A stretch of DNA of 36,013 nt from Verrucomicrobiota bacterium (lineage in GTDB: Bacteria > Verrucomicrobiota > Verrucomicrobiia > Opitutales > UBA2995). Position 1 is the first letter of the stretch. Each line of letters opens with the position of its first letter. The position numbers were made by a program, and so were the translations under genes. Location: NCBI GenBank assembly GCA_027622555.1, contig JAQBYJ010000057.1:1-36013 (forward strand), read 5' to 3'. Shown in pieces: positions 22,475-27,382 of the stretch. The notes beneath the pieces were generated by a model, which saw nothing but the letters and a program-made list of their open reading frames with translations, was not told where the DNA came from and made no database searches.

Positions 22475-22532
22475 AAGAGCTTCTTCACTTTCTACTTCAT
22501 GAAAGTCATTAAATAGTTGACCGAAGGCACTT

Positions 22533-22560
22533 TTGATCTATCAATTTTGACTAATCAAAA
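22533..22560 (+). promoter_or_regulatory. Tandem palindromes overlapping the troA start
   Basis: Two adjacent palindromes end at the ATG. TTGAT-CT-ATCAA is at 22533-22544 and TTTTGA-CTAA-TCAAAA at 22545-22560, the latter overlapping the first base of the start codon at 22560. A possible promoter TTGACC (22518-22523) with TATCAA 16 bases later lies upstream. The core TTTGA-n-TAATCAAA recurs before troB at 24111-24130, so this is likely the operator of a shared metal-responsive repressor. Confidence 0.65.
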
Positions 22561-23462
22561 TGAGAACTTTCATTACTCTAACTTGCATATTGATGACACT
22601 TCCACTTCATGCAAAATTACAGGTTGTAACCACGACTACCATGATCACCGACTTGGTAAAAGACATCGGCGGAGACCGCATCACGGTAACTGGCTTGATG
22701 GGACCAGGGGTCGATCCACACTTATACAAAGCAACCGCAGGAGATGTTCGAAGTCTGCAAAAGAGCCAGGTGATTTTTTACAACGGTCTCTTTCTTGAGG
22801 GGAAAATAGGCGATGTATTGGTAAAGCTATCTCGAAAAGGGAAAATGGTTTATGCGGTATCGGAAAACATAAGTGAGGACCGATTATTGGAACCACCAGA
22901 GTTTGCGGGGCATCATGATCCCCATATTTGGTTCGATCCGACGATGTGGGTGGAAACTGTTGGTGTAGTGGTTGAAGGCTTGAGTATTTCCGATCCCGAG
23001 AATGCCGAACACTACAAAAAAAGCGGGCAACGGGTAACCGAGAATTACAAGGAACTGTATAAATGGGCAGTTAAAGAACTCAACAAAGTCGATGCCTCCC
23101 AGCGCATTTTGATCACCAGCCACGACGCGTTTAATTATTTTGGAATAGCGTTCGGTTTTAAAGTAATTGGCGTCCAGGGAATTTCCACCGTAACCGAAGC
23201 GGGATTGGCAGACATCGCCAAAACAGTAGACTTTATTCGCGAGAATAAAGTGAAGGCCATTTTCGTAGAATCTTCAGTATCTCCGGCCACTATTAATCGA
23301 ATTAGCCAAGACGCAGGGGTAATCATTGGGGGTGAATTGTATTCCGATGCAATGGGAATTCCTGGAGAAACAGAAACAAGGCAAGGCGATACCTACGATC
23401 TCGGAACCTACGAAGGCATGTTAAAACACAACGTTTATCGAATCGTTGAAGCGCTAAAGTAA
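22560..23462 (+). CDS. troA: Periplasmic metal-binding protein of Mn/Zn ABC transporter
   Basis: This is the cluster A-I (TroA/MntA/ZnuA) solute-binding protein that captures Mn2+ or Zn2+ in the periplasm. A signal peptide covers residues 1-18. Four ligand positions are visible by family pattern: H54 in GVDPHLY, H122 in DPHIWFDP, H188 in TSHDAFNYF and D263 in YSDAMG. The third ligand is His, as in Treponema TroA, where the manganese-type PsaA/MntC proteins have Glu. There is no long histidine-rich loop as in ZnuA. The 300-residue length fits. Palindromes overlap its start, so metal repression is likely. Which metal is carried cannot be settled by sequence. Confidence 0.92.
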   Translation: MRTFITLTCILMTLPLHAKLQVVTTTTMITDLVKDIGGDRITVTGLMGPGVDPHLYKATAGDVRSLQKSQVIFYNGLFLEGKIGDVLVKLSRKGKMVYAVSENISEDRLLEPPEFAGHHDPHIWFDPTMWVETVGVVVEGLSISDPENAEHYKKSGQRVTENYKELYKWAVKELNKVDASQRILITSHDAFNYFGIAFGFKVIGVQGISTVTEAGLADIAKTVDFIRENKVKAIFVESSVSPATINRISQDAGVIIGGELYSDAMGIPGETETRQGDTYDLGTYEGMLKHNVYRIVEALK

Positions 23463-23590
23463 ATTGCTCCAATTCTTGGTTCAACTTGTATTTAACTGTT
23501 AAAAAACCAAAACCGGTTTTTCCTGCTGACATAGGCGGCATTTTTGGCATGCTTTCCGGACTTTAAGGACATATTACCTGATCCTCCCTT

Positions 23591-24049
23591 ATGCTGAATC
23601 TTGTTAGAAATATTTTTCGAAAAAAACCAGCTGTAGAAGAAGAGTACCTACCACTGGAAGTTGATAATGAAAATTCAGTCCCGATGGATGGTCCCTGGAT
23701 TGGAGTCGACTTAGACGGAACACTGGCTATCCACGATCTATGGGTAAGTAAAAACCATATTGGCAAGCCGGTTTTACCTATGCTCAATCGCGTAAAATCC
23801 TGGATAAACCAAGGACTTCGAGTAAAGATAGTCACTGCTCGGGCTTGAGAAGCAGATGGAATTCCACCTGTGAAAGCTTGGCTCAAGAAACAAGGTCTTC
23901 CGGACCTCGAAGTTACAAATAAAAAAGACTTTGGTATGATTGAACTCTGGGATGATAGAGCCATTCAAGTGATACCAAATACGGGTCAACCAGTCCTGGA
24001 TGGGTCACTCGCCACCAGGCCGAAAGCACCGGTTGGCGACTTAAACTAG
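23591..24049 (+). pseudogene. HAD-like hydrolase gene with in-frame TGA
   Basis: This gene encodes a small HAD-superfamily protein of about 152 codons. It has the phosphatase motif WIGVDLDGTLA (residues 36-46; D40 and D42) and a second conserved block, TARA, at residues 82-85. Directly after TARA, the TGA at 23846-23848 replaces codon 86. Beyond it the same frame continues with unchanged family pattern (KKDFGMIELWDDRAIQVIP) up to TAG at 24047-24049. No compensating frameshift is visible. A single C-to-T change from CGA would produce this codon. It is therefore a recently interrupted gene, a sequencing error, or recoding. It sits between troA and troB. Confidence 0.75.
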
Positions 24050-24110
24050 GCGTTAACCACCCAGTCGCTATAATCAAAGCACTTGCAATTTTGATAATTC
24101 CAGACCTTAT

Positions 24111-24152
24111 TACTTTGATTAATCAAAGTAGTAGTTTTTATAACTGAAAATT
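24111..24152 (+). promoter_or_regulatory. 20-bp perfect palindrome and promoter before troB
   Basis: TACTTTGATTAATCAAAGTA at 24111-24130 is a perfect 20-base palindrome. A probable -35 (TTGATT, 24115-24120) lies inside it, and TATAAC follows 18 bases later as -10, so binding would block polymerase. About 40 bases upstream an everted pair ATCAAAG / TTTTGAT (24073-24096) is also visible. The site resembles the one at the troA start, pointing to one regulator for both transcripts. Confidence 0.7.
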
Positions 24153-24155
24153 GAG

Positions 24156-24944
24156 ATGTCGCCCACAAACCCTATTCCACTTGAAATTCATGATCTAACG
24201 GTAGCTTACAACCAGAAACCGGTGCTTTACGGCATCGACCTGGAAGTGCCCGCCGGAAATCTGATTGGGATTGTGGGACCTAATGGAGCTGGTAAATCGA
24301 CCCTTATCAAAACCATCATGGGGTTGGTCCCCCCCAGTAGTGGCTGGGTAAAAATATTTGGAAAACCGTACAAGAAAAATGCAAAACGAGTCGGTTATGT
24401 TCCTCAACGTGAATCCGTAGATTGGGATTTCCCGGTAAACGTATTGGATGTCGTATTGATGGGAAGATATGGTCATCTCGGAATGTTAAGACGACCTGGT
24501 CGCAAAGATCGGGAAATTGCCATGGCCTGTCTTGAAAAAGTCAATATGGCTCCTTATGCGCAGCGGCAAATTTCAAATCTTTCCGGCGGACAACAGCAAC
24601 GCGTATTTCTTGCCCGCGCGTTGGCACAGGAAAGCGATTTATATTTTCTGGACGAACCATTTTCAGGCGTAGATGCCGCAACAGAATCGGCTATCATAAA
24701 AATCCTCATGGAACTACGTGAACGGGGCAAAACATTGCTGGTTGTTCATCACGACTTAACAACCGCCAAAAACTATTTCGACATGCTCTTACTGCTCAAT
24801 ATGCGGAAGGTCGACTTTGGTCGAACCGAGGATGTGTACACCTACGAAAAACTGCAAAAAACGTATGGTGGACGATTAACGATTCTTTCCGAGGTAGCAG
24901 AAACCCGCAGCAAACAATCCAACGACTTACCAGTCGATAAATGA
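24156..24944 (+). CDS. troB: Mn/Zn ABC transporter ATP-binding protein
   Basis: This is the ATPase subunit that drives metal import through the TroC/TroD membrane pair. Walker A is GPNGAGKST (41-49), the Q-loop lies in PQRESVDWDFP (near 88-98), the signature is LSGGQQQR, and Walker B is LYFLDEPFSGVD. A switch histidine follows in LVVHHDL. Its 262 residues are typical of the TroB/MntB/ZnuC branch. Its TGA overlaps the ATG of troC by four bases (ATGA), indicating translational coupling. A short C-terminal tail after the ATPase core is rich in polar residues and carries no domain I recognise. Confidence 0.94.
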   Translation: MSPTNPIPLEIHDLTVAYNQKPVLYGIDLEVPAGNLIGIVGPNGAGKSTLIKTIMGLVPPSSGWVKIFGKPYKKNAKRVGYVPQRESVDWDFPVNVLDVVLMGRYGHLGMLRRPGRKDREIAMACLEKVNMAPYAQRQISNLSGGQQQRVFLARALAQESDLYFLDEPFSGVDAATESAIIKILMELRERGKTLLVVHHDLTTAKNYFDMLLLLNMRKVDFGRTEDVYTYEKLQKTYGGRLTILSEVAETRSKQSNDLPVDK

Positions 24945-26404
24945 GATTATTTCAACAATTTGGTGGAGGTGCATTTTTCGCCCTCCTGCTGCTGCTCCTC
25001 ATGTTCGGGAATGAAGTATCTGCTGCAAAAATATCAGAAATTAGTGACACCCGCCTTACAGAACAATTCTTTCGTTTTTTCTCCTTCAAAGATCCGTCTG
25101 TTCAATACGCGGTGCTTGCCTCACTTTTACTTGGAACCTGTTGCGGATTGCTAGGAAGCTTCATTGTCGTTCGCAAACTGGCATTAATGGGGGATACTCT
25201 CAGTCATGCGGTTTTACCAGGCGTAGCTTTAGGGTTCTTGTGGTCCATGAGCAAAGACCCATGGGCCATTTTTGTTGGGGCTACCATTGCAGGCCTACTT
25301 GGCACCGTCGTCGTACATTGGATACACACGACGACACACATCAAAGAGGATAGCGCAATGGGATTGGTCCTATCGGGATTCTACGCCATAGGCATTTGCC
25401 TGTTTACAATGATTCAACACCTGCCTACAGGAAATAAGGCAGGTTTGGATAAGTTTATGTTTGGCCAAGCCGCGGCAATTAGCAGCGGAGATCTGACCAT
25501 GATCGCTATAGTGACTGCAGTGGCAGTGGTTCTTATTATTATTTTTTATAAAGAATTTCTGGTTACCAGCTTTGACTCCAATTTTGCTACTGCTCTTGGA
25601 TTACCTGCCCGCTTCATACATTATTTGCTCATGCTTCTGTTGGCATTTTCAGTGGTAATTGGGCTTCAAGCGGTAGGAATAGTTCTTGTTTCGGCGATGC
25701 TAATTACACCAGCAGCAACGTCGTTCTTACTGACTGACCGAATGCATCTTATGCTTATATATTCCAGTCTGTTTGGAATGACTGCCGGTGTTTTGGGTGC
25801 GTTCTTTTCTTACCTGGGAAACAGCCTACCTACAGGGCCTTTCATGATTGTGAGTGCCAGCGCTTTGTTCGCATTGGCACTGCTGTTTGGGAGGCGCTAT
25901 GGAATTGTCCCACGATGGGTTAGACAATTGAACAAGGACCGTCGTATCCAAATTGAAAACACGTTAAAGGCGATTTATCAAATTCGAGAAAAAGCTGATT
26001 TTCGGAAAGACGGAGTTTCTGTTCAACAACTGGGAGAACAACGCAACCTTCCGTTAATTGATATAAGCAGGGAAGTGAAGCGACTCGTCAAAGAACGATT
26101 TGTCACGTTAAGTGAGCAGGAAATGGATGAATTTCATCAGAGCCGGATGATTTATCTGACGCCTTCCGGATGGGGAAACGCGTGTCGAATTGTCAGGAAT
26201 CACCGTTTGTGGGAGCTATATTTAACGGAGTCAGTTCATTACGCACCCGACCACGTGCATGATGACGCTGAAGAAATCGAACACGTATTGGGTGAAAATA
26301 TTGTGCGCGATCTGGAACGAAAACTCAATTTCCCCACAGTTGATCCTCACGGGAAACTTATTCCGAGCATCATCGATCTTGGAGAAGCCGAAACAACGAT
26401 TTAG
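24941..26404 (+). CDS. troC: Metal ABC permease fused to DtxR/MntR-type repressor
   Basis: Two modules are visible in 487 residues. The N-terminal 50-325 region is a TroC/MntC-type permease (SFIVVRKLALMGDTLSHAVLPG at about 73-94), preceded by an additional hydrophobic segment (11-28). From about 335 the sequence changes to a soluble DtxR-family winged helix (IENTLKAIYQIREK) with a dimer/metal domain. The ancillary-site residues H421, E425 and H440 and primary-site E444, E447 and H448 align with DtxR/MntR, and DPHG (468-471) is conserved. The first ligand position (D8 in MntR, M10 in DtxR) is N340, and MntR E11 aligns with K343. Such fusions occur in other bacteria; function of the fused domain is inferred. 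Confidence 0.88.
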   Translation: MRLFQQFGGGAFFALLLLLLMFGNEVSAAKISEISDTRLTEQFFRFFSFKDPSVQYAVLASLLLGTCCGLLGSFIVVRKLALMGDTLSHAVLPGVALGFLWSMSKDPWAIFVGATIAGLLGTVVVHWIHTTTHIKEDSAMGLVLSGFYAIGICLFTMIQHLPTGNKAGLDKFMFGQAAAISSGDLTMIAIVTAVAVVLIIIFYKEFLVTSFDSNFATALGLPARFIHYLLMLLLAFSVVIGLQAVGIVLVSAMLITPAATSFLLTDRMHLMLIYSSLFGMTAGVLGAFFSYLGNSLPTGPFMIVSASALFALALLFGRRYGIVPRWVRQLNKDRRIQIENTLKAIYQIREKADFRKDGVSVQQLGEQRNLPLIDISREVKRLVKERFVTLSEQEMDEFHQSRMIYLTPSGWGNACRIVRNHRLWELYLTESVHYAPDHVHDDAEEIEHVLGENIVRDLERKLNFPTVDPHGKLIPSIIDLGEAETTI

Positions 26405-26407
26405 AAA

Positions 26408-27382
26408 ATGATGGATTTGATCCCCCCATTCGAAATGAGAAACTTTTTTACCGCACCCTGGATGGATGGAGCGTGGGAAAGTTCGATGTGGATTGTTGTA
26501 ATGGGAGTTCTGGTTAATTCAGCCTGCGGACTTGTCGGTAATTTTTTGATACTCCGGAAGATGGCTTTGGTTGGAGATGCAATCAGCCATAGTATCCTTC
26601 CAGGGATTGCTATTGTTTTCCTCATGTCCAACTCACGATCAACCGGGCTCATGGTAACCGGTGCCTTAGCTGCAGGTTTAGTAACCGTCTGGTTGATTGA
26701 ATTTATTCACACAAACTCACGGGTAAAAAAAGATGCAGCGTTGGGAGTTACTTTCACAACCTTGTTTGCAATAGGTGTAATTCTAATTTCGGTGTTTGCC
26801 GATCACGTTGACTTGGACCTGGAATGCGTACTTTACGGTGAAATCGGCTTTGTTTATTTTGAAGACAGTCAATTGATCCTGGGGCTAGACATTCCCTGGT
26901 CCGTTTTAAGAATGGGAGGTACCTTAGTGTTGGTGTCCTTGCTAGTTTTTGCGTTTTATAAAGAAATAGTGGTTACCTCCTTTGATTCTGGTTTGGCTAC
27001 CTCCCTTGGAATACCAGCTGGATGGATTCATTATGGACTCATGATGATGCTTTCATTGGTTATTGTTTTTTCCTTTGAATCCGTTGGAGCCATTTTGGTG
27101 ATAGCTATGTTAATTTTGCCCGGGACAACCGCAGCGCTACTCTCCGAACGACTTCCGCATATATTAATCCTCAGCCTTGTCTTTTCAGCTTATTACGCAA
27201 TTAGCGGTCTTCACCTGGCAACTTTGCTCAATTGCTCACATGCAGGAGCAATGGTAGTTTCAGGATTTTCGCTTTTCTGTCTCGTATGGATCATAAGCCC
27301 AAAAAGAGGACTCCTAATCCAAAGCATTAAGAGATACCGCGGAAGAAAAAGTGCGGCGGCGGATCCAGGCTTTGGCGGCTAA
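26408..27382 (+). CDS. troD: Metal ABC transporter permease
   Basis: This is the second integral membrane subunit of the Mn/Zn importer, pairing with the TroC-like permease. The 324 residues hold about eight to nine helices. Family landmarks are GNFLILRKMALVGDAISHSILPGIA (around 43-67, split when read) and VVTSFDSGLATSLGIPAGWIHYG (around 189-211). The gene starts 3 bases after troC and its stop overlaps the stop of the convergent MBL gene by 4 bases. The start could also be the second ATG at 26411. Unlike troC it has no fused cytoplasmic domain. A final basic tail ends the protein. Confidence 0.92.
   Translation: MMDLIPPFEMRNFFTAPWMDGAWESSMWIVVMGVLVNSACGLVGNFLILRKMALVGDAISHSILPGIAIVFLMSNSRSTGLMVTGALAAGLVTVWLIEFIHTNSRVKKDAALGVTFTTLFAIGVILISVFADHVDLDLECVLYGEIGFVYFEDSQLILGLDIPWSVLRMGGTLVLVSLLVFAFYKEIVVTSFDSGLATSLGIPAGWIHYGLMMMLSLVIVFSFESVGAILVIAMLILPGTTAALLSERLPHILILSLVFSAYYAISGLHLATLLNCSHAGAMVVSGFSLFCLVWIISPKRGLLIQSIKRYRGRKSAAADPGFGG

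What the first reader, a model, noticed from the sequence alone, without database searches (positions are those of the whole stretch)
22533..24152. Matching palindromes in front of both halves of the metal transport locus
Tandem palindromes end at the troA start codon (22533-22560), and a perfect 20-base palindrome overlaps a probable -35 box before troB (24111-24130). Both contain TTTGA-n-TAATCAAA. The match suggests one regulator for two promoters, plausibly the domain fused to TroC. The site is not a Fur or DtxR consensus as I know them.
Basis: partly seen in the sequence, partly recalled or inferred. Interest (0 to 1): 0.6.

Follow-up and report, generated by a model that had tools for sequence, protein, structure and literature searches.

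The report
TroR-type operators of a metal-uptake locus
Two matching DNA palindromes in front of a bacterial manganese/iron-type transporter are binding sites of the same kind as those of the known metal repressor TroR, most likely read by a separate TroR-like protein encoded elsewhere in the genome and not by the look-alike domain fused to the transporter.

Summary
The palindromes are real, at the stated coordinates, and not chance. TTTGANTAATCAAA occurs exactly at three places in the 6.0 Mb genome: before troA, before troB, and before an outer-membrane barrel gene. All six relatives of the same family that hold the locus keep a version before both troA and troB; more distant Opitutales keep it before the tro operon. 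A weaker second box lies exactly 22 bp downstream in most of 48 sites, suggesting two cooperating dimers. 'One regulator, two promoters' is supported. 'The domain fused to TroC' is not: all 27 genomes with the motif hold a separate TroR-like protein; in 14 sampled loci that gene is divergent from troA with an operator between; five nearly complete genomes have the operator but no fused domain; one genome with the fusion but no TroR has a different palindrome. The fused domain keeps the DtxR fold and metal ligands but no conserved recognition helix. Overall: ordinary repressor biology in a new phylum, plus an open question about the fused sensor domain.

The parts
22545..22560 (+). troA operator, box 1: TTTTGACTAATCAAAA, overlapping the A of the troA ATG
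   Evidence: same position touching the start codon in relatives L093, L094, L096, L097, L098 (and the ATT start of L026)
22567..22582 (+). troA operator, weaker box 2 at +22 bp (CTTTCATTACTCTAAC, 8 of 12 arm bases), inside the first troA codons
22531..22546 (+). imperfect palindrome upstream of the troA operator (TTTTGATCTATCAATT); not conserved in relatives, role doubtful
24111..24130 (+). troB operator, box 1: perfect 20-bp palindrome TACTTTGATTAATCAAAGTA (core 24113-24128)
   Evidence: TTTTGACTAATCAAAA or a 1-2 base variant at the same place before troB in six relatives
24135..24150 (+). troB operator, weaker box 2 at +22 bp (TTTTTATAACTGAAAA, 10 of 12 arm bases)
22560..23462 (+). troA, periplasmic metal-binding protein (ZnuA/TroA family PF01297)
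24156..24944 (+). troB, ABC transporter ATPase
24941..26404 (+). troC, ABC-3 permease with a C-terminal DtxR-like domain
25895..26401 (+).
26408..27382 (+). troD, second ABC-3 permease

Best explanation
The two palindromes are operators of a TroR-type metal repressor (DtxR family). When Mn(II) or Fe(II) is sufficient, dimers of a separate TroR-like protein (in this genome the 218-aa protein at G000:C96:8126-8335, minus strand) bind box 1 and, with help, the weaker box 2 22 bp (about two helical turns) downstream, and block transcription of troA and of troBCD. When metal is scarce the protein leaves and both transcripts are made. The same repressor probably also controls an outer-membrane barrel gene on contig C87. 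Shown here: the sites, their rarity, conservation, second box, and association with the separate TroR. Inferred: binding, metal dependence, cooperativity, repression.
For: The arms TTTTGA/TCAAAA are those of the tested TroR operators (PMC2628430 Table 2). Only three exact sites in 6 Mb, all in front of genes. Conserved before troA and troB in the family. 27 of 27 motif genomes among 132 hold a separate DtxR protein scoring over 100 bits, against 54 of 132 overall (Fisher p 2e-13, not corrected for phylogeny). In 14 of 14 sampled loci where a separate troR gene is divergent from troA, an operator with at least 10 of 12 arm bases lies between or at the gene starts; 0.84 expected from shuffles. 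In G142 the operator abuts the start of a troABCD with an unfused 318-aa TroC, and the only DtxR in that genome is the separate one. The recognition helix of the separate protein is conserved (mean pairwise identity 0.77) while that of the fused domain is not (0.31), at equal conservation of the metal domain (0.78, 0.80). The separate protein has PF01325, PF02742 and FeoA domains; the fused domain has no PF01325 match. Second box at +22: mean 7.75 of 12 against 3.49 at other offsets.
Against: No binding or expression data. In the window's genome the troR gene is on another contig and carries no recognisable operator of its own. The TroR proteins of Treponema could not be fetched, so recognition helices were not compared directly. 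The fused domain keeps the complete DtxR fold including the winged helix, and its Chlamydia counterpart YtgR is a proven repressor, so a role in DNA binding is not excluded. The association is over related genomes. Half of the genomes with the separate protein lack the exact pattern, although several of those have variants of it.
Confidence: 0.85

Rival explanations
1. The DtxR-like domain fused to TroC is itself the repressor, released by cleavage or acting from the membrane as YtgR of Chlamydia does, and reads both palindromes.
For: The fusion is conserved over much of Verrucomicrobiota and in Hydrogenedentota; full DtxR fold with the metal ligands kept; the Chlamydia YtgC-YtgR fusion is cleaved and represses its own operon (PMC5599777).
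Against: The operator occurs in nearly complete genomes without the fusion (G142, G049, G056, G066, G124). G132 has the fusion but no TroR and carries a different palindrome, AAATTAGCCTTACCTAAATT, before troA. The recognition helix varies among genomes with the same operator, for instance LPLIDISREVKRL in G000 against LSPSEVEKEIRQL in G002. No PF01325 match.
Confidence: 0.1
2. Both the separate TroR and the fused domain bind the same operator, as homodimers or mixed dimers, giving a two-input switch.
For: Both are DtxR-fold proteins, and the metal-binding/dimerisation part is equally conserved in both.
Against: Same as for the fused domain alone; nothing in the sequence calls for the fused domain at the DNA.
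Confidence: 0.12
3. The palindromes are chance AT-rich sequence or transcription terminators.
For: AT-rich palindromes do arise by chance; the looser pattern is not enriched genome-wide.
Against: Rarity, position before genes, conservation in relatives and the fixed second box. The low G+C arms are not terminator-like.
Confidence: 0.01
4. Another known regulator reads the site: Fur/Zur, an FNR/ANR-type protein (TTGAT-N4-ATCAA) or a short MntR.
For: TTGAT and ATCAA half-sites resemble those of FNR (consensus from own knowledge).
Against: The spacing is N2 here against N4 for FNR; the sites are in front of metal-uptake genes; genomes with a short MntR in place of TroR carry another palindrome.
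Confidence: 0.02

Closest known systems
TroR / tro operator of Treponema denticola and T. pallidum (PMC2628430)
   Same: Operator arms TTTTGA/TCAAAA before a troABCD Mn/Fe-type ABC transporter; DtxR-family regulator with an SH3/FeoA-like C-terminal domain.
   Different: Here the regulator gene lies elsewhere in the genome (divergent neighbour of troA in many relatives), there are two operators in one locus, a second box at +22, and TroC carries its own DtxR-like domain.
YtgABCD and YtgC-YtgR of Chlamydia trachomatis (PMC5599777, PMC6504234)
   Same: ABC permease fused to a DtxR-like domain in a metal-uptake locus.
   Different: [quoted passage not shown] here a separate TroR is present and fits the operator better. 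The YtgR operator sequence could not be compared.
SloR of Streptococcus mutans, SRE elements (PMC12096823)
   Same: Mn-responsive DtxR-family repressor binding a strong and a weaker neighbouring palindrome cooperatively; SloR is among the solved-structure matches of both proteins.
   Different: Another palindrome sequence; spacing not compared.
DR2539 of Deinococcus radiodurans (PMC3327659)
   Same: Mn/Fe-responsive DtxR repressor of a manganese importer; best fold match of the fused domain by Foldseek and second-best sequence match of the separate TroR.
   Different: Single protein at mntH; no transporter fusion.

Membership tests
TroR operator | Dyad with arms TTTTGA....TCAAAA as in the tested Treponema operators | tested here: met
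   troA box 12/12 arm bases, troB box 10/12 (outer ends C and G; T. pallidum's site also begins CTTTGA)
TroR operator | Located at the promoter/start of a troABCD-type transporter | tested here: met
TroR operator | Genome encodes a DtxR-family regulator with HTH, metal-binding and SH3/FeoA-like domains | tested here: met
   separate protein at G000:C96: PF01325, PF02742, PF04023
TroR operator | Mn(II)/Fe(II)-dependent binding and repression | not testable with these tools
   needs EMSA or reporter assay
Classical DtxR/IdeR box (TTAGGTTAGCCTAACCTAA) | TTAGG half-sites | tested here: not met
   half-site is TTTTGA; consensus from own knowledge
FNR/ANR box | TTGAT-N4-ATCAA | tested here: not met
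   spacing is two bases; consensus from own knowledge
YtgCR-type permease-repressor fusion | ABC-3 permease fused to a DtxR-like domain with metal ligands | tested here: met
YtgCR-type permease-repressor fusion | Fused domain acts as DNA-binding repressor of its own operon | tested here: inconclusive
   Fold kept, but recognition helix not conserved, no PF01325 match, operator independent of the fusion across genomes
YtgCR-type permease-repressor fusion | Proteolytic release of the domain | not testable with these tools
   needs protein blots

The most novel reading that the evidence does not exclude
The DtxR-like domain fused to TroC is not a transcription factor but a metal-sensing domain that acts on the transporter itself (for example shutting transport when cytoplasmic metal is bound), so that a DtxR fold with kept metal sites and a drifting recognition helix works next to a separate TroR that does the gene regulation.
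Probability: 0.35. Interest if true: 0.7.

Novelty: new member of a known kind. Interest (0 to 1): 0.42.

Why it matters
It extends the TroR operator type from spirochetes to Verrucomicrobiota and names its likely reader. It also predicts a metal-uptake regulon that includes uncharacterised outer-membrane barrels (Phenol_MetA_deg family, four genomes), TonB-dependent receptors and feoA. The coexistence of a true TroR with a DtxR domain fused to the permease raises a testable question about what such fusions do, which bears on how the Chlamydia YtgR fusion arose.

Tried and rejected
The first genome pattern (TTTGANNNTAATCAAA) was mistyped and found nothing. The upstream troA palindrome (22531-22546) as a conserved tandem partner was rejected: absent in relatives. 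The looser pattern YTTTGANNNNTCAAAR is not enriched over its control in the genome; the +22 box separates the three promoter sites (scores 8, 10, 11) from three sites inside ORFs (2-5). Selenocysteine at the in-frame TGA of the ORF between troA and troB: no tRNA-Sec over the Rfam cut-off. No papers were found on DtxR permease fusions or MntR regulons in Verrucomicrobia. The YtgR operator sequence was not found in the text of the papers read. Absence of other folds from the structure list was not used.

Full report
OBSERVATION. The palindromes are in the sequence as described: TTTTGACTAATCAAAA at 22545-22560, its last base being the A of the troA ATG, and the perfect 20-mer TACTTTGATTAATCAAAGTA at 24111-24130 before troB (24156). 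The pattern TTTGANTAATCAAA (13 fixed bases) occurs exactly at three places in the 6,017,364-base genome: the two named and G000:C87:1566. The reversed control pattern gives none.

LOCUS. troA is a ZnuA/TroA-type binding protein, troB the ATPase, troC an ABC-3 permease with a C-terminal DtxR-type domain (PF02742), troD a second ABC-3 permease. Related loci are annotated as Opitutales and other Verrucomicrobiota.

CONSERVATION. In relatives at 67-80% TroA identity the operator touches the troA start codon and recurs shortly before troB (L023, L024, L025, L026, L052, L096). In more distant loci (L030, L034, L035, L037, L049, L076, L077) one copy lies upstream of the tro operon. The TTGAC-like element upstream of the troA operator and the lack of room for a leader suggest a very short or leaderless troA mRNA; this is inference.

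WHAT KIND OF SITE. A text search for the palindrome found one paper: the study of Treponema denticola TroR, PMC2628430. Its tested operator fragments contain ATTTTGATATATCAAAAT (T. denticola) and CTTTGATGCATCAAAA (T. pallidum). The window's boxes share the arms. TroR is a Mn/Fe-dependent DtxR-family repressor.

SECOND BOX. Over 48 operator sites (related genomes included) the score against TTTTGANNNNTCAAAA peaks at offset +22 (7.75 of 12; other offsets 3.49, sd 0.74). In this genome the three promoter sites score 8, 10 and 11, while three other palindromes, all inside ORFs, score 2 to 5. SloR offers a precedent for cooperative binding to a strong and a weak neighbouring element (PMC12096823).

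WHO READS IT. The genome has two proteins with PF02742: TroC and a separate protein on contig C96, the latter with N-terminal HTH (PF01325), PF02742 and FeoA domains. In 132 genomes of the order, 27 hold TTTGAYTAATCAAA (15 genera), and all 27 hold a separate protein of this kind (54 of 132 do) (Fisher p 2e-13, not corrected for shared ancestry). In 14 sampled loci where a separate troR gene is divergent from troA, an operator with at least 10 of 12 arm bases lies between the genes or at a start codon; shuffles expect 0.84. Five genomes that are 93-97% complete have the operator and a single PF02742 protein, the separate one: G142 (before troABCD with an unfused 318-aa TroC), G049 (before another metal ABC transporter), G124 (at feoA), G056 (outer-membrane barrel) and G066. 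G132 has the TroC fusion but no TroR; its only other PF02742 protein is short (163 aa), and its troA upstream region has AAATTAGCCTTACCTAAATT. Other clades with the fusion and a short MntR-like protein also show palindromes of that or a TGTAGC..GCTACA type by eye; these classes were not tested statistically.

THE FUSED DOMAIN. AlphaFold2 (41 sequences, mean pLDDT 89) gives a complete DtxR fold with winged helix; Foldseek's best match is DR2539 (E 2.4e-10) and VIA-align gives Z 18.9 to DtxR over 137 residues, rmsd 2.0. Metal-ligand positions inferred from the SloR alignment are kept (H103, E107, H122, E129, H130 invariant, E126 nearly), while the N-terminal ligand position is an asparagine. Across 28 genomes with both proteins, the metal domain is equally conserved (0.80 fused, 0.78 separate), but the recognition helix is 0.31 against 0.77, and PF01325 does not match. 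So it looks like a metal sensor whose DNA reading is relaxed. What it does is open; action on the transporter is the novel case.

REGULON. Operators precede Phenol_MetA_deg outer-membrane barrels in G000, G149, G056 and G087, TonB-dependent receptors in G036, G092 and G006, feoA in G124, and a CobW protein divergent from a tro locus in G036. Some other sites lie inside ORFs and are probably chance (G086, G142:C29).

LIMITS. All evidence is comparative. Binding, metal, cooperativity and repression are inferred. Genomes are related, so counts overstate independence. Treponema TroR and the Chlamydia operator were not compared directly.

Noticed in passing
window 23591-24049: HAD-like ORF between troA and troB with an in-frame TGA at 23846-23848 where three relatives have Cys and two have Gly; the copy in G003 is also broken. 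No tRNA-Sec over the Rfam cut-off, so probably a decaying gene.
   Followed up: partly
L099:1565-1602 (G000:C87): Third exact operator, with a second box scoring 11 of 12 at +22, directly before a Phenol_MetA_deg outer-membrane barrel gene and divergent from a MerR-type regulator with mercury-transport-like genes.
   Followed up: partly
L203 (G132), L033, L048, L050, L055, L071, L075: Loci with the same TroC fusion but other palindromes before troA/troB (TTAGCC....CTAA or TGTAGC..GCTACA) in genomes with a short MntR-like protein: the operator type seems to follow the separate regulator.
   Followed up: partly
L029, L046, L069: Contigs labelled Desulfobulbus, Sumerlaeota and Rhodothermaeota carry tro loci like those of Verrucomicrobiota/Hydrogenedentota; the labels may be wrong or the genes transferred.
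   Followed up: no
G005 (same genus as the window's genome): 75% complete genome without the TroC fusion or the motif, but with two separate DtxR proteins, one matching the fused domain better than usual (38% identity over residues 337-476).
   Followed up: no
L199 and L200 (G036:C67 start, G036:C83 end): The same operator sequence stands at the ends of two contigs, probably one site split by assembly or a repeat; one side leads into a TonB-dependent receptor gene.
   Followed up: no
L035, L045, L049 and others, between troA and troB: In many related loci another gene of about 1.2 kb lies between troA and troB, ending like an outer-membrane porin; in the window its place is taken by the HAD-like ORF.
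   Followed up: no
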